64,000 nt of DNA from NCBI GenBank assembly GCA_023101885.1, contig JALPQD010000625.1, positions 155,967 through 219,966 of the forward strand, read 5' to 3'. This DNA comes from Typhlomys cinereus (Eukaryota; Chordata; Mammalia; Rodentia; Platacanthomyidae). The position numbers and the translations under genes are program-made. The notes beneath the pieces are model-generated. The model worked only from the letters and a program-made list of their open reading frames with translations. It was not told the DNA's origin and did no database searches. Shown piece after piece: positions 4,104 through 58,085 of the stretch (the first letter of the stretch is position 1; every line of letters starts with the position of its first letter).

Positions 4104-4349
4104 TTATTCAATTGTACATGTGTGTATATGTATGTGTAGAACCACGGGAGAATTCAGGAACCACCATGGACCTCCTTCACCTCCTTCATGTGTACTCTGC
4201 CCCGGGATTCACAGGCTCCACTCTACCAGGACCAGAAACGCAGGCCACCCTCGCTTCTACCTGGCATCTATACGTGGGGTCTAGGGTCTGAACTCAGGAC
4301 CTTCTGCCTGCAAGGCAGAGGCTTAACCCTCAGCCACCTCTTCAGTCCC
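4104..4349 (-). mobile_element. tRNA-derived SINE, family with unusual GC-rich body
   Basis: On the minus strand it starts with a tRNA-like head (A-box-like TGGCTGAGGGTTAAGC, B-box-like GAGTTCAGACCC), followed by a GC-rich body and a TA/CA-rich tail. It is flanked by a perfect 15-bp direct repeat (4089-4103 and 4350-4364), which is a target-site duplication. Two other copies are at 45662-45955 and 57783-58085. It is absent from duplicated block B, so it inserted after that duplication. Confidence 0.85.
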
Positions 4350-15699: not shown

Positions 15700-17100
15700 G
15701 AAATCCAGTCAGCACAGAAGATGCTTCCACCCATGGCCTGAGCCAATTTATCTCTCCTAATAATTGTTGTAAACTGGTGATAGTAATATTGCCAGGCACA
15801 TTCATAAATGGTCTGAGAGGTGATGCCCGCGTGTCAAATGGGTCCTTAAAACCCTGAAATGAGGCACCTGTTGGACCTTATCAGGGGCAATACGTAAGTT
15901 TCCCCTTTTTAAGTAATCACCTCTTGCATAAGGGATTGCAATTTAGTTGGATCTTTATGTGCGATGATAATATCATCCATATAGATATATAAGAACATCT
16001 TTATGTTTGAGCAATGGTTCAATCAGTTTATAGATATAAGTCTGACAAAAGGCTGGACTATTAGCCATTCCTTGTGGGAGCACTAGCCATTCATACCTTT
16101 GGTCAGCGCCTGAAAAGTTCATAGATGGGACAGAAAAGGCAAACTTTTCACAGTCCTCAGGGTGCAGTGGAATAGAAAAAATACAGTCTTTAACATCAAA
16201 GACCAAAAAAAAAAAAAAAAATCAATGACCAGAATGGTATAGTCCGAGGGGATGGCTGCTACCCAGGGCATCCCTCTAAGGGGAGGGGGGTGCCCACTAG
16301 CTTCATCCGTTTGTTAATCAACCTAAATCTTATAACATGTGCCACTTCCCAGAGGACTTTTTAACAACAAACACTGGTGTATTCCACGAACTCATAGACG
16401 GGCAGATGTGGCCTTGTTTTAGCTGTTGATCTACTATTTCTCCTAGGGCCTTTAGTTTTTCTTGGGGTAGGGGCCACTGCTCCACCTAGGGCGGATTACC
16501 TGGTTCCCATTTGATCTGGGGGCTGCAAGGGGCAGCGTTCCTTATAATTGGGGGTGAACCTGAGGAACTTTTGGGGTCTCCCCCCGATAGTTATGAAAGT
16601 TAGAGAACTTGTTTTCAGGCACTGTTTCTATTGGCTCAGGAAACCTAGAGGCCTCCTCATGATCTAACAGGTCTTCATAGAAGGCTCTATCATCAGTAGT
16701 CAGGGCTGCTTGCATTTGCCCCAGGATGTCCTGCCCTAGTAAATTGACTGTGAGTCCCACGAACACCAGGGGTTGCACTTCTCCCTTGGAACCATCAGCA
16801 TCCTGCCACCCTACCCAGGATGCTGTTTATTCTGACTGTATATTCCCTCCCACCCCCAGAACCTCAGGGCCTGTCGTTAAGCCCCATGAGCGGGGAATTT
16901 CCTCTTTCCTTAGGACTGTTTTATCTGCCCCAGTGTCTATAAGGCAGTGGAAATGCTTGCCATTGATAAAGATGCTCATTTTAGGACGGAGACCTTCTAC
17001 CAGGGGAACAGTCCAATGAGCCTGAGGCCTTTCTTTTGTAGACCAGTCTAATTAAAAATCCTCAAGGGTCTTCCTTTTTAAGGGCCCCCATGCTCCTCCT
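15700..17100 (-). pseudogene. pol: ERV pro-pol remnant (protease and reverse transcriptase)
   Basis: The protease keeps the retroviral active-site motif DTGAD at about 16928-16942. An in-frame TAA lies about 35 codons later, after which the same frame continues to about 16542. RT fingers are readable at about 16240-16500. The palm segment at 15973-16206 shows the LPQGMANSP block typical of class II ERVs. The YMDD catalytic motif is present at about 15968-15985 but in a shifted frame. A run of A's at 16203-16219 interrupts the palm. An INWLRP-like motif at about 15740 marks the continuation of pol. No functional enzyme can be made. Confidence 0.88.
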
Positions 17101-17131
17101 TTGGTTAACGAGGCTGGAGGCTGCCCTGGAG

Positions 17132-18902
17132 CTAGTTTAAGGGCTTGCCCTCTTGATCAAGTTTCGATCTACAGTCTCTTCTCCAGTGAAGCCCTCTGTG
17201 GCACCTAGGGCATGGAGTTGTAGGGGCCTTAGCCCCTCCTACCTCCCTCGGCTTCCTTTCCTTGCCCTGGGGACACTCCCTCCTGAAATGCCCCATCTGG
17301 CCACAACTAAAACAAAGTCCATTGTTTCCCCTCCCCTCTTGGCCCTGTAGACTGGGTGTTGGCCTCAAGGCTAATGCCAGCACCTTTGTTTGTGTCTCTA
17401 GGGCCGCAGCAAATGTCTGACTCTGGTGTTTTTGAGTCCCCACATCCTGTGAAGCAATAATCCAGGTGCCCACGGATCTCTCCTTAAGACCTGCATGTGC
17501 TATTTTGTGATCCCCATTCATCCCTTCCCATACCAGCAATTTAGCAAATTGTTCCCTTAGGGGTTCTGGGGGAAGTTTACGACAGAGGCTTTTTTCCACC
17601 TGGCCAATGAACTCAGGGAGGGTCTCACCCAGTTTTTGAATAATGCCTACTAGAGGCCTTTCAGAAGGACCTTCATCTAGCTTTTTCCAAGCCGCTAAAC
17701 CTATCAAGCGGACTTGGTCTTGGTATGGGGCTTCTATGGCTGGCTGCTGGACCCCAGTAGAAAATTGATCTGAAGTTACAGCTAACATTCCGAACGTTAT
17801 AGGCACCCTGGGCTGCACTCAGCTTGGATCCTACATTCTTTCTTAAATAGCGCTGCCCACTTAATGAACGTGGGACTGGGGAGCACCGCTTTGGCCATAT
17901 CCATCCAGTCCTTAGTAGTACAGGGTTGGTGAGCTAGATCTTGAAGGAGGGCCTCAACCCAAGGAGAATTTGGACCATCCTCTAGCACGGCCCGCTTTAA
18001 TTCTTTGAAGTCTTTTGCTTCCCAAGGATACCACACTGTAGGGTGATTGCCTCCTGGATTTAAGTGAACAGGATAGGCTTGTACTTGATACGCCCCAGCA
18101 CATGCACACATGGGCTCCAGCCCTGGGTTCCCTGCTCTAGCCTGGCAGGGGCCAGTGTGCCCACATGCTGGCCCACCCGCTGGTCCGCTTTTGTGAATCT
18201 CTGTCACCCCGCTGTGCGCAGCCTCCTGGCAGCCACGTATGGCTCCCCCTCTGCATGGTTCCACATCCCCACATGTTGCCCTGCTACAGCCTCGCACAGT
18301 CTCTCCACTGCGGCGGGTGGCAGCTTCTCCAGTACTGGTACCACGCGCTCCTGTCACAGCCCACAACTCTGTGTAATGTTTTCGGTGCACGCACAGTGAT
18401 GGGTTTTCATTCTCTAAACAGCAGGCATGCCCACCATTCCCATGAGATCCTGCACCCTGCCATGGGCCAGTGCAATCTCTGCCGCACCACCCTGGCTCCT
18501 GGGCGGAACCTGCTTCAGGGTGCCCGGGATGGCTAGTTGGCTCCAACCCCCCTGGAGCCATACTCCAGAATGCCTCTGGCCCCTCCCTCTCTACCTGCAT
18601 CTTTCACTCTGATGCAGGCTGAATTGGATTGGGAAGGAAAACCATCTTGGGCGCAGAAATTGTGGAATAAAATTCCACGGAAGGCAGCATATTATGATTT
18701 TTTTCTGCTCTCTGGCTAGACCTTCTATTTTATTCCACGTGTCCCATGACAATATGTTGGTGGCCTGAGCCCACGGAGCCAACTCAAGAGTCAGTTCCCA
18801 CACTCTGTCAATGCCTGGATCAGAAATGTCAAACCCGCGACTCCTTAATATGGACTTGAGTGCTGATGGCACTGGATCCAGCCTGCACGTTGAATTCCCC
18901 AT
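17132..18902 (-). pseudogene. gag: ERV gag remnant (matrix, capsid, nucleocapsid)
   Basis: Gag is the structural polyprotein. The likely start is ATG at 18902 (MGNST, an N-myristoylation-type start), 59 bp downstream of the primer-binding site. The matrix part is readable to about 18600 and is followed by a Pro/Ala/Gly-rich stretch. Capsid N-terminal sequence (KDFKELKRAV) is at about 17960-18020. After a frame change, the capsid C-terminal half (major homology region at about 17585-17650) and two CCHC zinc knuckles follow: CX2CX4HX4C at about 17270-17310 and again near 17170-17220. Two or more frameshifts break the frame. Two knuckles and the order of domains fit a betaretrovirus/IAP-type gag. 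Confidence 0.87.
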
Positions 18903-18960
18903 ATTTCCCAAGTTTTTACTTACCCCGAAGACTGCTTAGCTTCGTCTGATTTCAGAAGTG

Positions 18961-18977
18961 TCCCTTCGTGGTCGCCA
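18961..18977 (-). other. Retroviral primer-binding site (class II ERV)
   Basis: On the minus strand TGGCGACCACGAAGGGA starts two bases after the LTR's terminal CA. Its start (TGGCG) and end (GGGA) resemble a tRNA-Lys-type PBS, with internal differences. The tRNA assignment is tentative. Confidence 0.65.
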
Positions 18978-18979
18978 CT

Positions 18980-19397
18980 TGTGGGAGCCAGTGCCCACTC
19001 ACGTACTCATTCACTCACTCACACACACAGCTGCTGGCTGTGATGAAAGCAGGTTCCAGTCGTCCCCACCTCCGCCTCTACCCCCAGAGACTCAGCACAG
19101 GATGGGGAGATTGTCAGAAGCAGATCTCTCTTTATTGGGGGGAGAAAAGGAACTTTTATAGACAAAGGCCACCAAGGCGCGAATCGGGCATCCAATTGTG
19201 TCACAAGGTCAAGACATCCTACAGGTGTTAATGGTCAAGTTCAATGTCACTCAGCACAGGAGGCAGGTAGATACCTGAAAGCCAATTAGGGCTCTCTGTG
19301 AAGTGATCAGGTTATGCCCAAGACCCTTGTCCTCATCGCCATCTTTAGTCCCATGTGCTCGGCCATGCCCTGGGGTAAATCCTGGGCGGGCCCAACA
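18980..19397 (-). repeat. 5' LTR of the class II ERV
   Basis: On the minus strand it begins TGTTGGG (19397) and ends CTCCCACA (18980), an imperfect inverted terminal repeat. A TATA box (TATAAAAG, about 19155-19162) and AATAAA (about 19131-19136) lie close together, as in IAP-type LTRs with a short R. It is about 418 bp long. Confidence 0.85.
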
Positions 19398-50160: not shown

Positions 50161-50163
50161 AAT

Positions 50164-50174
50164 AACAATCTGAG
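50164..50174 (+). repeat. 5' target-site duplication of the retroposed ERV
   Basis: AACAATCTGAG immediately precedes the first base of the R region. The same 11 bases occur directly after the poly(A) at 56808-56818. Confidence 0.88.
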
Positions 50175-50315
50175 GCCGCTTCAGTCTCTCCTGCGTGAGA
50201 GGTTGCTGGAGCCGCCCGGCGCGTCGTTAAATAAAACCTCATGCTATTGCAGCGAGAAGGGTCTTGGTCTTTCTCTCGGTGGCCTCGTTCCTGACTGAAA
50301 GACGGGGGTCTTTCA
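50175..50315 (+). repeat. R-U5 of the retroposed element
   Basis: R = 50175-50250, with AATAAA at 50230-50235. U5 follows to TCTTTCA at about 50315. Identical in layout to the 3' R at 56705-56780. Confidence 0.88.
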
Positions 50316-50318
50316 TTT

Positions 50319-50336
50319 TGGGGGCTCGTCCGGGAT
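50319..50336 (+). other. Primer-binding site, tRNA-Pro type
   Basis: TGGGGGCTCGTCCGGGAT, the same 18 bases used by murine leukaemia virus-type gammaretroviruses with tRNA-Pro. It starts three bases after the LTR end. A strong splice-donor-like GAGGTATGT lies about 40 bp downstream. Confidence 0.95.
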
Positions 50337-50339
50337 TCG

Positions 50340-53300
50340 AGACCCCCGAGAGATTGCCCCAACACCGGCCTCGGAGGTATGTGAGCGCTCCTGTCTGTCT
50401 TTACTTGTGTTTTGTTTAAGTCTGTGTCTGTTTGTGTTTGATACTGTGTCTGTTTGTTTCCTCTTATGAGGTTCGGGGCGGTCAGTAACTGCGAGACAGA
50501 CGTGTCATATCGCAGAGACCGTGAGGGTCCCAGGGGACGCCCTGGACTCTCTGTAGGGGAAAGGACAGAAGTGTCCGTTCCCCATCTGGTTTTGTCTGAT
50601 CTGCAGTCTGTAGTTTGTCTGATCTGCAGTCTGCAGTATTTGTGTCTTGTCTATCTTGTCTTGAATCACTAAAAGGATATTAGGAAAAGAACCCAAACTC
50701 TGAGTGTTGAGGTCGAAAATTTTGCCTGTGATGATAGTTACTTCAAATGTTCTAACTTGATTGGTTACTTGGATTTCTTATAATATGTGGGTTTTATGTT
50801 TCAAAATAACAAGCTGTGGCCACTATAAATTTCATTGCGCGCTTATGATCACATTTTGGTTTTTGACTCTGTTTACTATTTGGCATGCTCAATTTAAATG
50901 CACGTGCACACTTAGGAATAAATCATTTTGATGATGTAAAAAGGCCTGAGTACGTACTGACCAAAATATCTTGTTTTATCTTGAAGCTTCACAAAAAGTG
51001 GCATTGTGTTTTTACCTAGGATCTGGTAACATCACTTTTGTAGTTCCTTTAAAAGTTTGTTTTCCCATGAGTAATACCAACATATCTAACAGCCAGAAAG
51101 GAAAACTGATTTCTGAAAAATTCATTGGAATTCCTTCATTCTCCTGGTATGTATGAGTTCCCTTTCTTGGGGACAAATCTGCTTTCTAATTCCCTGTTCC
51201 CAGGTGTACTCCTGTGTTCTGCTATATAATGATTTTTAAGATAAGGTCTACTGCTTCTTTTAAAGGATATTTCTTACAGGATAACTAATGTGAAAACAGC
51301 AGGAAACCATCAAATAGAAAGAAATATATATTTATAGTACGTAGAGGTAAAGAAGGTTTTGGGATGAGATATGTTACTTAGAAAGTTAAAGTATGTGCAG
51401 GAGGTTTATGAGTTGGTTACTTAAAAAGAATGTTAAAGTATGTTATGAAGGTTTGTGGGATGTAGAGTTATGAGAAGACTGAAAATAAGAGATGATGGTT
51501 AAAGAAAATATTATTTGTTATGTTTCTTCCATGTTATAAAACAAAAGATATTGAGCCTCAGAAATTAGAAATTAAGAATTAAGCTTCATGTATTCAAATG
51601 TATTTCAGTTGTCTGTTTAAAGCAGAAAATTGGTTACTTCTAAAATCCCAACTTCTCAAGGACAGTAGGAATCTAACCAGTGGGGTCATAAATGAGAAGT
51701 CTGAGACCAGGGCCCTTCCTGCCCCCAGGGAGGTGGCCAGCAGAAGCTGAGGCCCCGCCTCAGCTGCAGCTTGGAACAGACTCAAGGCCAACTAGGGAGT
51801 TTCTCTAAATCTTGGACTTTATGGTAAAAGAGACTGTGCTAAACCAACCTCTGCTCACCTTTTGGAGCAGGCCTCTCTTGGAGGGGGAGGAAAAGGGCAC
51901 CTGCAAAATGGGGGAGGGAATATTTTAACCTCTGTATGAATGTGTGAGTGAGTGTCGGCCTGAGGTGGGAAACCTGTAACACCTCTGGCTCGAGTTTGTA
52001 GTCCCACGGCGAGATCCCTAAGATCTCTTAAAGCCACGGGATTCGATTGGGCCAGTTCTGCGTTTCCATGGTGATAACATATGGTCTAGGGTGGGATCGG
52101 ATTAGAATCCGATCGCAAGTCACGAAACAGCTGAACCCACTATGGCTAAGTTATCACCCATGACTCTGCAAAGAGTGTGGCCAGACTGGTACTTGAATGA
52201 TCTCTCCTGGAGGGATTCCCAACCTTTGTCTGTCTGCGTCGTGTGGTGGGGATCAATGTGACTCTAGCTCTTGGTCTACGTAGTACAGTGGGGATCAATG
52301 TAACTTTAGCTTTTGTTAGTCAATGGAAGGGAATTCCTAAAAATGTTTGCCCTGAAGGAAAGTGTTTCAAGTCTGAGACAATGACTATGCTGTTTAAATA
52401 GCATAGGGAATACAGGAAGCTTCAGGCATGTGTGGACCATGGACTCTCCCCTTTTAGTGTCATCGGGTGGGGCTCTGGTGGCGTTGGGTGGAGTGCTGGC
52501 CTCCCCGGACCACACCACGGGCAGTGTCAGTGGATGTCTTTGCTGACAACACTGTGTATAGTGATTATCAGAACTCTGCTAAGCCACGCGTCCTTTCCTC
52601 AAGTCCAGGTTCACTAATTGAAGCCAGAAGAGAGCGATTTCCCCTTCCTGTGTCCAGGGACTATCTAGAAATTGTGAATGCTTAGTTCTACCAACCTAAA
52701 AGAGGGTCAAGTCATAGCATATTCTCAGACATGCCCTGTATACATCTTAGACAAGAGATGATCCCAGGAAGATCTTTAAGTTATACTACCATCCAACTAG
52801 ACAAACAAATGCCAGAAAGTTGAGAGACTATAGAGCTGGACCAAAAGTACCAGTTAGTAACTCAGGAAAAGCTTTGCCTCTCAATGCCCTCAAGACTAAG
52901 GTGAAACAGACAGGAATTTCATTTAGCTTCCATGTCAGCCAAAGTCCTCATCTGTCAGAGGAAAGTAAACTCTCATGTGGAGGACAACAGGGCTTTCATC
53001 TGTTGAGGGAAATAGGTCCCCATCTGGAGGATAGCATCCTCATCTGTAAGGGAGAGGTTGGTACCATCAGGAAGCTTTCATTTCTGTCTTGGAGGTAGAA
53101 TCCTTTGTTTCTGTTTGTCCTAGGATTTTAAAAATAGGACAGGTGACCTAGGACTTAGTATAAAAAAGAAAAGAAAGAAAGAACTAGAAAGCAAAGAAAT
53201 CAGAACTTGACATTTGCCTTAGGGGATAGGTTAAACAGGCACCCCAAGCAGATCAACCCAGGACCCCTCCCGACAGGGGAAAGGTAAAGATGCTTCGAAT

Positions 53301-54235
53301 ATGACCAGACTGGGCGCTTTGAGACTGTTGTGAGCACAGAAAGCTTTCATGTGGCCTATGTCCCAACTATGGGAATTTCCACTGGAGGAAGATTGCCCCC
53401 TGAACCTCAGGGCCCAGGGGTCGAGCGAGTTCTCTGGAGACCAATGAAATGGCCTGAAGCTCTTAGCTTCCCTCCGATGGGAAAAAGGAGTTTGCCACTG
53501 ATATCCAGCAAAAGGAAGCCCAAAAGTGCCAGGTTGAGCATCTCGTGAGAACCTTGGGTTTAACGTGCAAATGGGAAGCCTCTTTGTTTCTATGTTAATA
53601 GACAAGGGAGCACAAAATTCTAGTGCTCAACTTCCTTCCTAGGCTTTTGTCAACTTTTGATTTTACTAAAATGTTTAAGATCAGGAAAATGACAGGCTCA
53701 TTGCACTCACAAAGTAACTACTGAGATTCCTTATATGCTTAATAGTGATGCTTTTTAGGCATTCCTTTGTTTACATGCCTGAGTGCCCGAATATTCAAGG
53801 TTTAGGCTTAATAGAATAAAATAGTTTAGCACTGTTATAAAGTCATCCACGTGGCTCTGGTTTTAGACGCACCAAAGGTATTAAAAGAGAAAATCATGGG
53901 TTACAGAAAATGTCAGATAGCATGTAACAAAAGTCTGCAGTTTAAAGACCCTAAATGCTGCATCCTTATCCAACCATTCTGATGGATAAGATTCCAACCT
54001 GATAAGATATTATCTCAAGGAAACATTTTCTGGAGAAAAGACATGGCTTATTTAGGAGAGATAAAAAACATAGAAATTGTCAGGTCTTGGTGTTTCTTCC
54101 TAGTTCAGGCCTAAAGCCTGTTCCCTGGGGAAGGTCACTGTAACCCCATGGGCAGGTGCTAGGAATTTCTTGGTATGTCACAATAACGCCCAGGGACAGG
54201 TGCTAAACATTCTTTCCTAGGTAATTTACATTTTG
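50340..54235 (+). other. Internal region of the retroposed element, mostly non-coding
   Basis: The leader (50340-50690) has GTCTGT-rich tracts like gammaretroviral leaders. No gag is readable. At about 53585-53640 a short stretch reads MLIDKGAQNSS, resembling a gammaretroviral protease LVDTGAQ active site with Thr changed to Lys. No long open frame exists, as in VL30-type defective elements. I cannot assign 50700-53500. Confidence 0.55.
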
Positions 54236-54870
54236 CCCCGGGCTGGCGTGAGCCCCCAGGCCGAGCCGGCCTAGACCCCTTCTGCCCCTGCCGCACCCCT
54301 CTCCACCCTGGCCATAGGGGTTTGGGCTCTGTGGTTGTTGACCTCCTCTACTAGAGAGATTAAGAAAACTGGAGTGGTGTCTGACGCCAGCTTGTTCCTG
54401 CTGCTTTCCTTGACAGTATTCAGCATCGTGAGTGTGACGGCCTACATTGCCTTGGCCCTGCTCTCTGACTATCAGCTTTAGAAGGGCATGATCCAAGCAA
54501 TCCAGAAATCAGATAAAGGCCACCCATTCAGGGCATATTTGGAATCTAATGTTGCTAGATCCGAGGAATTGATTCTGCTCTCAGTCATGTGAACTGCACC
54601 ATAAAAGAACTCAGGTGCCTTTTCTTAGTTGATGATTTAGTTGATTCTCTGAAGTTTGCAGTGTTAATATGGGTGTTTACTTATGTTGGTGCCTTGCTCA
54701 ATGGTCTGACACCACTGATTTTAGCTGATTTCACTCGTCAGTATTCCTGTTATTTATGACTGACATCCCAAGTGCAGATAGATCATTACCTAGGACTTGC
54801 AAGCAAGAATGTTAAAGATGCTATGCCTAAAATCCAAGCAAAATTCCTGGATTGAAGCACAAAGCAGAAA
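54236..54870 (+). pseudogene. Rtn4-ps: Spliced reticulon-4 (RTN4/Nogo-B) cDNA segment inside the ERV
   Basis: This corresponds to the mRNA of reticulon 4, an ER-shaping membrane protein. It starts in the Pro-rich end of exon 1 (VSPQAEP at about 54249-54269), joins directly to the reticulon homology domain (VVDLLY from about 54331, as in the short Nogo-B splice form) and runs to the C-terminal GLKRKAE-equivalent codons at about 54850-54868. FSIVSVTAYIALALLS, HVNCTIKEL, LVDDLVDSLKFAVL and QIDHYLGLA are all recognisable and fit RTN4 rather than RTN1 or RTN3. Stops (for example TAG for the Trp in LLYW) and small deletions break it. There is no intron, no RTN4 3' UTR, no long poly(A) and no obvious flanking repeats. 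It has the same orientation as the ERV. Confidence 0.9.
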
Positions 54871-56271
54871 AATAAAAAGATGCTATCATAGGAAAAATTA
54901 TTCTTTTAATAATTATATTGCTTAAGCCCATGCTGGGACTTATAAAATGTTGGGGACACATATAGTTAATTGTAAAATATGTTCCTTACTGAAATCAAAA
55001 GGAGCTCAATCTTTCTCTGTATATATAAAAAAAAATGCAGTCTCTGTTACAAGTATGTGGGCTCAGCCTCTTGGCTATCTGGTGCAGCAATATAGACTGG
55101 CTAGATTTGGAAATACTGAGAGAATATTTATGTTAAGTGCCATTATCCTCAAGCAATGGGATAGGTTCTTGGAAAAAATGTCCTTCCTAAAAGTAAAGCT
55201 GTCACAGAAGTTTCAGTAAACGGGTCCAGATTCACTAAGCCAAGAGAGTTGTTTTTGTTCTCCATTCTGCTGACTCCTTGCCTCACCTGATCCAGGGGAG
55301 CCCTGGTCTTGAGGCTGCAGCTCTGGCCTAAGGCACCCAAGAAAGACAGTTTATGCTATAGAATTAAAACCAGAGACATAGGTTGGCGAAAAGTTTAATA
55401 AAGTTTTTCCCTTGTCCTAAAAGGTTGCCTAAAGTTAAACTCAGTGCTTGACAGAGGGAAAAAGCAATGGCAAACTTAAGAAGTAAACTAAGAAAAACAG
55501 CAAAACTCCAGGTGTAGCTCCAGAGCAGCTCCATTAGCTAATCAATGCTGGCTTTTCATTTAGATCAGAGAAATGGTGCTACATCCCTTTGGTCCCCCAA
55601 AAGAAGAAGACTTATGTTGCTTTATTTTTCAGAATAAAAAAGGAGGATAATTTAGATTGCTCTGTACAAAGAATCAGTTCGCATTGTTTTGGACAGGTTT
55701 TAAAATATGATCTACAGTAGCCAGAGGAAAAAGATCTCCTTGGCTTTTACACCTTGTAAATGTGTTCTTTTACTAACTCCTGCTTGCTTGTACCCACAGC
55801 AAGACTGCTGAGCTTGTTCGGTTTATCTCATGTGCCTTCCCAATTACAATGATCTGGTCCTTCTATAGATTCTGGAGACTCAATTTGCCTGTGTTTTGTC
55901 TCTTTTAGACCAACCTTGAGGTAATAAAGCCATCTATCAAAGACCTCTAGACCAACCCAGCATTTCATAGATGAGAATGTCAGACTGCTCTTATTTTCTT
56001 CGCCCCGATTAAGCAGGAAGCAGCAAGATCCGAATCATCGCCCTTTATCCCCAGAGCAGTCTGAATTCTCAAATAGGTTTATGGGAAAGTGAGGCAGGAT
56101 TAGAGCAGCTATGCTGGGATGGGTCTCTCAAGGTCTTTGGAATTCTGAAGAGACATCTCCTACTGCTGGAATCGCCTGGAAAGAACACCCCTGCTGAAAA
56201 ACTGACTCCAATCCTCCCAGAAATTTACCGCAAGAACTGTGACTAACACTCCATGATTGGAGTGTGCCTAT
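54871..56271 (+). other. 3' internal region of the retroposed element
   Basis: A run coding for a hydrophobic IILLIIILL-type stretch at about 54897-54930 may be an envelope TM relic. At about 55985-56050 the sequence resembles the stretch between env and PPT of gammaretroviruses (AAGCAGGAAGCAGC). No open gene. Confidence 0.5.
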
Positions 56272-56283
56272 AGAAAAGGGGGG
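56272..56283 (+). other. Polypurine tract
   Basis: AGAAAAGGGGGG directly before AATGTTGGACC, the start of U3; the standard plus-strand primer site of retroviruses. Confidence 0.85.
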
Positions 56284-56780
56284 AATGTTGGACCCTGAGA
56301 CCCTCGCCCTAAAATTCACAAAGCAGGCTGGTTCAAGCCCACAGTATAGCCCTTGCTTGTAGTCATTCAGGCATCCATTGTTTATAGCCATCCAAGCATC
56401 CATTGTTAGTCATTGCTTAAAACTATGTACAGCCTTGAGCTTTTTACAGGTACTTCCCCACCCCTTAAGACCTCCAGCCCTTCAGTTCTGGAAAAGCAAG
56501 TTTGCCCAAAGGGAATTCCATCAATGAAGGTCACCCAGAATGAACAGCCTGCGGTTAAGCAGGTGGACTGGAACGATCACCAAGAGCCAACTCCACCCGA
56601 GCTCTTGCCGACCAATGACTGTAAAGGTCATAGAAAATTCCTCAGCTAAGCAACCCCCCCCTACCCCAAGACCCCTTAAAAACCCCTTGCCCGAGCTGCT
56701 CGGGGCCGCTTCAGTCTCTCCTGCGTGAGAGGTTGCTGGAGCTGCCCGGCGCGTCGTTAAATAAAACCTCATGCTATTGC
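56284..56780 (+). repeat. 3' LTR lacking U5 (U3-R)
   Basis: U3 is 56284-56704 with a TATA-like TTAAAAA at 56676-56682, 29 bp upstream of the R start (56705). AATAAA is at 56760-56765, 15 bp before the poly(A). U5 is absent because the RNA was cleaved and polyadenylated at the end of R. Confidence 0.87.
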
Positions 56781-56818
56781 AAAAAAAAAAAAAAAAAAAC
56801 AAAAAAAAACAATCTGAG
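56781..56818 (+). repeat. Poly(A) tail and 3' target-site duplication
   Basis: A19-C-A9 (56781-56809) followed by the repeat AACAATCTGAG (56808-56818), which overlaps the last A's. It matches 50164-50174. Confidence 0.88.
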
Positions 56819-57782: not shown

Positions 57783-58085
57783 GGGGCTGGAAAGGTGGCT
57801 CAGGGGTGAAGCCTCTGCCTTGCAGGCAGAAGGTCCCTGAGTTCAAATCCTAGACACCAGGTATAGACGCCAGCGGAAGCGGGGGCGGCCTGCGTTTCTG
57901 GTCCTGATAGGGAGGAGCCTGTGAATCCCGGGGCAGAGTAAACAAGAAGGAAGTGGAGGCGTCCATGGTGGTTCCCGAATTCATCCGTGATTCTACACAC
58001 ACACATACACACACATACACATGCACACATGCGCACACACGCATACACACAGAATTGAATAAATAATAAATAATAATAAAAAAAG
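57783..58085 (+). mobile_element. tRNA-derived SINE, family with unusual GC-rich body
   Basis: The best-preserved copy: head GGGGCTGGAAAGGTGGCTCA, A box and B box GAGTTCAAATCC by 57848, GC-rich body 57855-57965, a short link, an ACAC/ACAT run (57995-58048), then TGAATAAATAATAAATAAT and an A-rich end. Confidence 0.88.

What the first reader, a model, noticed from the sequence alone, without database searches (positions are those of the whole stretch)
54236..54870. Cellular RTN4 (Nogo-B) mRNA segment carried inside a gammaretrovirus-like element
Seen: an intronless RTN4 stretch joins exon 1 directly to the reticulon homology domain, in the same orientation as the ERV. It begins inside exon 1, stops within a few bases of the stop codon, and has no RTN4 3' UTR, no long poly(A) and no evident flanking duplication. 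Known: LINE-made processed pseudogenes normally keep the 3' UTR and poly(A), whereas retroviruses that capture host genes take internal cDNA segments. Inference: the element acquired RTN4 by template switching before its RNA was retroposed here. A short A-rich stretch at the 3' junction (54868-54880) leaves the nested-pseudogene explanation open.
Basis: partly seen in the sequence, partly recalled or inferred. Interest (0 to 1): 0.9.

Follow-up and report, generated by a model that had tools for sequence, protein, structure and literature searches.

The report
Virus-like element family carrying RTN4 piece
This window holds one LINE-1-pasted copy of a recently active, non-coding retrovirus-like element of a rodent-like genome, and in every copy examined the element carries the same spliced, worn-out piece of the cell's own RTN4 (Nogo-B) messenger RNA.

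Summary
Window 54236-54869 is an intronless RTN4 piece: seven exons of this genome's own RTN4 gene (contig C270), joined. It sits in an element running R to R with a poly(A) tail and a target duplication, so this copy is a LINE-1-retroposed viral RNA. The decisive test came from the genome: 40 scored matches (this window and 39 others, of 427 candidates) are full length and 97-100% identical. All 36 copies behind the 41 scored flank matches carry RTN4 at the same 5' junction (28 read; 8 by adjoining coordinates). Of 17 copies whose ends were read, 14 are two-LTR proviruses with 0-4 LTR-LTR mismatches. No RTN4-less copy was seen, though only the best candidates were scored. Thirty substitutions and eight indels against the host gene are shared by at least 39 of 40 copies: captured once, decayed, then multiplied. 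Each of 59 copies has at least five frameshifting indels. Capture route (template switching, or insertion into a founder) is unsettled.

The parts
50161..50174 (.). target-site duplication, 5' copy (AATAACAATCTGAG; core AACAATCTGAG)
   Evidence: 13/14 match to 56805-56818, reached by 3 of 1000 shuffles
50174..50251 (+). 5' R region; the element begins here, without U3
   Evidence: 77/78 identical to 56704-56781
50252..50315 (+). U5
   Evidence: U3-R-U5 LTRs in 14 proviral relatives
50319..50336 (+). primer binding site, exact match to the proline-tRNA pattern TGGGGGCTCGTCCGGGAT (pattern recalled)
   Evidence: in the nine proviruses the 22 nt printed differ by at most one base
50337..54235 (+). 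non-coding leader and interior upstream of RTN4
   Evidence: no retroviral Pfam hit in 80 forward pieces of at least 24 aa from 50300-56290 outside RTN4 or 7 reverse pieces
54236..54869 (+). RTN4 spliced mRNA segment, part of exon 1 plus six exons; approximate exon blocks 54236-54327, 54328-54531, 54532-54653, 54654-54724, 54725-54770, 54771-54830, 54831-54868
54869..54880 (+). A-rich 3' junction within about 10 nt of the RTN4 stop codon
   Evidence: some other copies read GCAGAGAAATGAAAAG here (e.g. L006), so it is not a clean poly(A) tail
54881..56271 (+). non-coding interior downstream of RTN4
   Evidence: 96.8-99.6% identical with seven other copies over about 52.7-56.4 kb, RTN4 included
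56272..56285 (+). polypurine tract
   Evidence: sequence; the 200 nt ending here adjoin U3 in relatives
56286..56703 (+). U3
56704..56781 (+). 3' R region, ending at the poly(A) addition site
56782..56809 (+). poly(A) tail (A18 C A9)
   Evidence: a second copy (C958) also ends R plus A20
56805..56818 (.). target-site duplication, 3' copy

Best explanation
The window holds a LINE-1-made DNA copy of the RNA of a non-autonomous, non-coding LTR retroelement (works like VL30 and other defective gammaretrovirus-type elements). A founder of that family acquired one internal piece of spliced RTN4 mRNA, probably from its own host lineage. The piece lost its reading frame, and the founder's descendants multiplied by ordinary retroviral reverse transcription and integration, so RTN4 is now an inherited passenger of the family. 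Three of the 17 copies whose ends were read, this one included, have LINE-1-type ends instead. Shown: spliced RTN4 inside the element, the same junctions across copies, proviral copies with near-identical LTRs and short target duplications, decay shared by the copies, LINE-1 ends on this copy. Inferred: mobilisation by proteins supplied in trans; a single capture by template switching between co-packaged viral RNA and RTN4 mRNA (my preferred route, about 0.6); a passenger rather than a functional role.
For: Genome search with the RTN4 piece: 427 first-look candidates, 40 scored (the window and 39 others), all full length at 97-100% identity. Seven other loci align with the window over about 52.7-56.4 kb at 96.8-99.6% with the same junctions. 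The 41 scored flank matches come from 36 copies; 28 were read and all 28 hold RTN4 at the same 5' junction (25 of them not in the RTN4 list), and the other 8 adjoin RTN4 matches. Fourteen of 17 copies with ends read are two-LTR proviruses, 0-4 mismatches and 0-2 gaps per about 560 nt, with an exact 4- or 5-bp duplication in 12 of 14 as I read the printed flanks. Versus the host gene, 30 substitutions and 8 indels (6 frameshifting) are in at least 39 of 40 copies. One copy (C100, 4.5% from the others on average) lacks deletions found in most others but shares further ones, which points to stepwise decay inside the lineage. The host gene has residues S273, I327 and S346 as the piece does. Within the window alone, R and R differ at 1 of 78 sites where 6.7-9.1 are expected had RTN4 entered after LTR formation (P 0.0007-0.009).
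Against: No coding helper provirus sharing these LTRs was identified (the PF02093 search did not complete). Fourteen of the 30 shared substitutions are at CpG sites (14 of 58 CpG sites against 16 of 629 others), which suggests that the piece aged as methylated germline DNA before amplification; this fits an old RTN4 pseudogene or insertion into an old provirus as well as mRNA capture. Scored matches are those most like the query, so older relatives without RTN4 may be missed. Duplications in C447 (3 bp) and C783 (3 of 4) are imperfect. For C958 and C100 no target duplication was tested.
Confidence: 0.82

Rival explanations
1. The RTN4 cDNA piece entered the DNA of a founder provirus (repair of a break with a reverse-transcribed mRNA fragment, or an internally primed LINE-1 insertion), and the founder then multiplied.
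For: No poly(A), no 3' UTR and both ends truncated match the RT-product-mediated break repair described in mouse zygotes (PMC4516963, passages). The shared changes are concentrated at CpG sites, as expected if the founder sat in germline DNA. A weak flank similarity exists (72-241 of 1000 shuffles; lenient 79-109 of 2000).
Against: No significant, flush duplication. Same orientation as the element, which template switching requires and insertion gives one time in two. No RTN4-less copy was found to compare with, so this rival is not excluded.
Confidence: 0.3
2. The element captured an already decayed RTN4 processed pseudogene by read-through or recombination, not RTN4 mRNA.
For: All 59 near-complete copies carry at least five frameshifting indels, and 17 sites differ from the host gene in every one.
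Against: The C100 copy lacks the deletions at 86, 94 and 365, present in 56-57 of 59 copies, and that at 268, present in 45, so part of the decay happened inside the element family. No RTN4 3' UTR or poly(A) came along.
Confidence: 0.1
3. RTN4 is a later nested processed pseudogene present only in this copy, or was joined by LINE-1 template switching when this copy was made.
For: Short A-rich stretch at the 3' junction; LINE-1 chimeras with mRNAs are known (PMC13174262, passages).
Against: Same junctions and same indels in proviruses elsewhere in the genome; R-R divergence too low.
Confidence: 0.01
4. The copies are segmental duplications of one locus rather than transposed elements.
For: Two copies lie 6.35 kb apart on contig C589.
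Against: The 8-nt flanks printed for the 14 two-LTR copies all differ, with short duplications at the LTR ends in 12; the 40 scored matches lie on 39 contigs. Longer flanks were not compared.
Confidence: 0.02

Closest known systems
FAM8A1 transduced by a human endogenous retrovirus (Jamain et al. 2001; seen only as cited in PMC6987440, passages)
   Same: Host gene sequence inside an endogenous retrovirus of a mammal
   Different: Different host gene and element; FAM8A1 is described there as ubiquitously expressed, whereas each of 59 RTN4 copies examined is frame-broken and the piece is shared by a many-copy, recently active family
VL30 retrotransposons of mouse (PMC4859993, passages)
   Same: Non-coding LTR element with near-identical LTRs, PBS, PPT and no intact gag, pol or env; proline is among the primer tRNAs listed for VL30
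   Different: VL30 keeps regions related to gag and pol; none was found here by Pfam. A captured RTN4 piece is not mentioned in the passages read
HERV-W processed pseudogenes made by LINE-1 (PMC5016936, passages)
   Same: R-U5 at the 5' end, U3-R at the 3' end, poly(A), 5-15 bp duplication
   Different: Different virus and host; here the retroposed RNA also carries host mRNA
Oncogene-capturing retroviruses and retroviral patch insertions of host RNA (reviewed in PMC4997597, passages)
   Same: Piece of host RNA joined into a viral genome
   Different: No evidence of an expressed protein; inherited in the germline as a repeat family
LTR-mediated retroposition of host mRNA (Tan et al. 2016, as described in PMC5408686, passages; the paper itself is not held)
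   Same: Partial mRNA inside LTR element sequence; template switching at short similarities is the proposed route
   Different: The review says that LINE-1-linked retrotransposition dominates in mammals; this is a mammalian case with many descendant copies

Membership tests
LINE-1-processed endogenous retrovirus | 5' end at R (no U3), 3' end at R (no U5) | tested here: met
   full LTRs exist in proviral relatives
LINE-1-processed endogenous retrovirus | poly(A) tail and 5-15 bp target duplication | tested here: met
   (window copy only)
LINE-1-processed endogenous retrovirus | TT/AAAA-like insertion motif | tested here: inconclusive
   site reads AG/AATA or AT/AACA depending on where the duplication starts
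Host-gene transduction by an LTR element | spliced host mRNA segment inside the element | tested here: met
Host-gene transduction by an LTR element | segment inherited at the same junctions in two-LTR proviruses with short duplications | tested here: met
Host-gene transduction by an LTR element | acquisition by template switching during reverse transcription | not testable with these tools
   needs an RTN4-less sister element; none found
VL30-type non-autonomous LTR retrotransposon | paired LTRs, PBS, PPT, no intact genes | tested here: met
   LTRs, PBS and PPT in relatives; no retroviral domain in the window copy
VL30-type non-autonomous LTR retrotransposon | gag and pol remnants | tested here: not met
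   0 retroviral hits in 80 pieces of the window copy; the same method gave Gag, protease and RT hits in 42 pieces of a neighbouring ERV, which has longer open frames and so is not a matched control
VL30-type non-autonomous LTR retrotransposon | sequence relation to VL30 | not tested
   no VL30 sequence was compared
Gammaretrovirus | pol phylogeny | not testable with these tools
   no pol detected
Gammaretrovirus | proline-tRNA PBS and 4-bp duplications | tested here: inconclusive
   PBS exact; duplications read as 4 bp in 7, 5 bp in 5 and imperfect in 2 of 14 proviruses
Nested LINE-made RTN4 processed pseudogene | poly(A), 3' UTR and duplication around the piece, in this copy only | tested here: not met

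The most novel reading that the evidence does not exclude
The captured RTN4 RNA segment is not a mere passenger: it became a useful part of the element's RNA (packaging, stability, or interference with host RTN4 transcripts) and was kept through successive subfamilies.
Probability: 0.06. Interest if true: 0.88.

Novelty: new variant of a known kind. Interest (0 to 1): 0.74.

Why it matters
Retroviral capture of host RNA is known mainly from acute tumour viruses and single loci (recalled, and in the passages). Here a mammalian germline family has carried one captured mRNA segment through many integrations, so the history (capture, decay, amplification, LINE-1 side-copies) can be dated from indels and LTRs. 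It also shows that a host-derived, non-coding segment can ride in an active LTR element, and that retrocopy counts of a host gene can be inflated by an ERV family.

Tried and rejected
A nested pseudogene in this copy only and a LINE-1 chimera made at retroposition were rejected by the genome copies. Segmental duplication was judged unlikely from the differing flanks. An APOBEC-type G-to-A signature was looked for: among the shared substitutions outside CpG there are 7 G>A against 2 C>T, too few to claim. A junction-spanning reverse ORF found no relative (8 candidates, none at E<=1). R-region and U5-PBS patterns found nothing in viral contigs, nor did an R pattern in genome contigs. Rfam gave two hits in the region, both below the gathering score. 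The kappa V search did not identify the species. A first lower-bound dating without the parent gene agrees with the later direct evidence. This is not proof of absence.

Not completed: a count of all junction-bearing copies and a search for coding relatives (family PF02093) were asked repeatedly and never answered. The 427 and 2298 first-look candidates are not verified copies. The copies whose ends were read were not drawn at random: they came from the RTN4 list, plus two chosen for unusual RTN4 indels.

Full report
What is there. The window lies in an immunoglobulin kappa V region of a rodent-like mammal (V-gene pieces; nearest proteins mostly rodent; species not identified). The element occupies 50174-56809 on the + strand. 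It begins at R rather than U3, has U5, an exact proline-tRNA primer site at 50319-50336, a non-coding interior, a polypurine tract, U3 (56286-56703), R again (56704-56781) and a poly(A) tail, and is flanked by a duplication matching at 13 of 14 positions. These are the marks of a retroviral RNA copied in by LINE-1, as described for HERV-W (PMC5016936, passages).

The RTN4 piece. Its protein traces match Reticulon and Reticulon-4 structures. The RTN4 gene of the same genome was found with the exon-1 protein, one match among 150 scored candidates, on contig C270, and its reticulon-domain exons were located downstream. The piece is part of exon 1 plus six further exons joined without introns, ending within about 10 nt of the stop codon. 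Three residues in which the piece differs from the squirrel protein P0052 (S273, I327, S346; each also seen in some other RTN4 protein) are those of the host gene, so the donor was probably the host lineage itself.

Is it in other copies? Yes. The RTN4 piece gave 427 first-look candidates, of which 40 were scored: the window itself and 39 others, all full length and 97-100% identical. These are the most similar ones, so I also sampled by flank. A 200-nt query of the two flanks joined gave 2298 candidates and 41 scored matches, none spanning the join. The 41 matches come from 36 copies. Twenty-eight were read and 28 of 28 carry RTN4 at the same 5' junction (25 of them not in the RTN4 list); the other 8 adjoin RTN4 matches. 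In 5 of the 28 the piece is cut short, or was not followed to its end within the stretch read (L083, L088, L094, L095, L104). A pattern allowing 0-30 nt between the flanks found none in the genome, but it needs exact words and misses diverged copies.

What are those copies? I read both ends of 16 other copies in separate pieces. Fourteen have two LTRs of about 556-567 nt with, in the order read, 0, 1, 1, 1, 0, 2, 2, 4, 4, 4, 3, 0, 0 and 0 mismatches and 0-2 gaps (mean mismatch 0.28%). I read an exact 4- or 5-bp duplication at 12 of the 14; C447 shows 3 bp and C783 3 of 4. Of the other two, C958 ends at R plus A20 and gave no LTR or leader match in its 5' stretch, and C100 begins exactly at R and has only the first 160 nt of U3 in its 3' stretch before other sequence. 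With the window that makes three copies with LINE-1-type ends among 17; a target duplication was tested for the window only.

When was RTN4 captured? Against the host gene, the first 40 copies differ by 5.3-6.9% in substitutions and by 9-12 indels; 30 substitutions and 8 indels are in at least 39 of 40. Among 59 near-complete copies the mean pairwise difference is 1.7%, 17 sites differ from the host gene in all 59, and every copy has at least five frameshifting indels; six shortened or partial copies (L083, L088, L094, L095, L096, L104) were left out of the 59. C100 lacks the deletions at 86, 94, 268 and 365 (present in 57, 57, 45 and 56 of 59) but shares those at 53, 534 and 649 and the insertion at 577. 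The simplest reading is one capture, loss of the frame, and further decay while the family multiplied. Shared changes hit 14 of 58 CpG sites against 16 of 629 other sites, which suggests that the founder spent time as methylated germline DNA. The interior is also CpG-poor (0.17-0.34 observed/expected) while the U5-leader block is not (0.67).

Mechanism. Shown: RTN4-bearing copies spread as two-LTR proviruses, with side-copies that have LINE-1 ends. Inferred: proteins supplied in trans, because 80 forward and 7 reverse pieces of the window copy gave no retroviral domain (34 longer pieces), while the same method found Gag, protease and RT families in 42 pieces of another ERV in the window (that ERV has longer open frames). 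For the capture itself I prefer template switching between co-packaged RNAs: same orientation, both ends internal, 5' break in a GC-rich stretch, 3' break in an A-rich one. A cDNA patch in a founder provirus (PMC4516963, passages) remains open at about 0.3.

Known or new. Host-gene capture by retroviruses and LTR elements is an established kind (PMC4997597, PMC5408686, PMC6987440; passages only). What differs is a mammalian, non-coding, recently active, many-copy germline family with a shared spliced host segment, some of whose RNAs were also moved by LINE-1. I rate it a new variant of a known kind.

Noticed in passing
window 15700-19000, - strand: A second, different and degraded ERV with betaretrovirus-type gag (Gag_p10, Gag_p24, zinc knuckles), protease and RT remnants inside the kappa V region.
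   Followed up: partly
G000 contig C589, 111437-118424: Two RTN4-bearing copies in the same orientation 6.35 kb apart, a spacing close to one element length, perhaps two elements sharing an LTR.
   Followed up: no
L083, L094 (C320, C133): Copies in which much of the RTN4 piece has been deleted while both outer flanks remain, so its loss is tolerated at least after insertion.
   Followed up: partly
window 4273-4342 (-) and 57794-57859 (+): A tRNA-like SINE, tRNA-Ala by ARAGORN at the first place and a sub-threshold Rfam tRNA hit at the second, with a CA-rich tail; family not identified.
   Followed up: no
window 50252-50700 versus interior: U5-leader CpG observed/expected 0.67 against 0.17-0.34 in the interior and U3 blocks; the interior looks older than the ends.
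   Followed up: partly
window 52232-52315 and 50591-50636: Short tandem duplications of 42 nt and 23 nt in the non-coding interior and leader.
   Followed up: no
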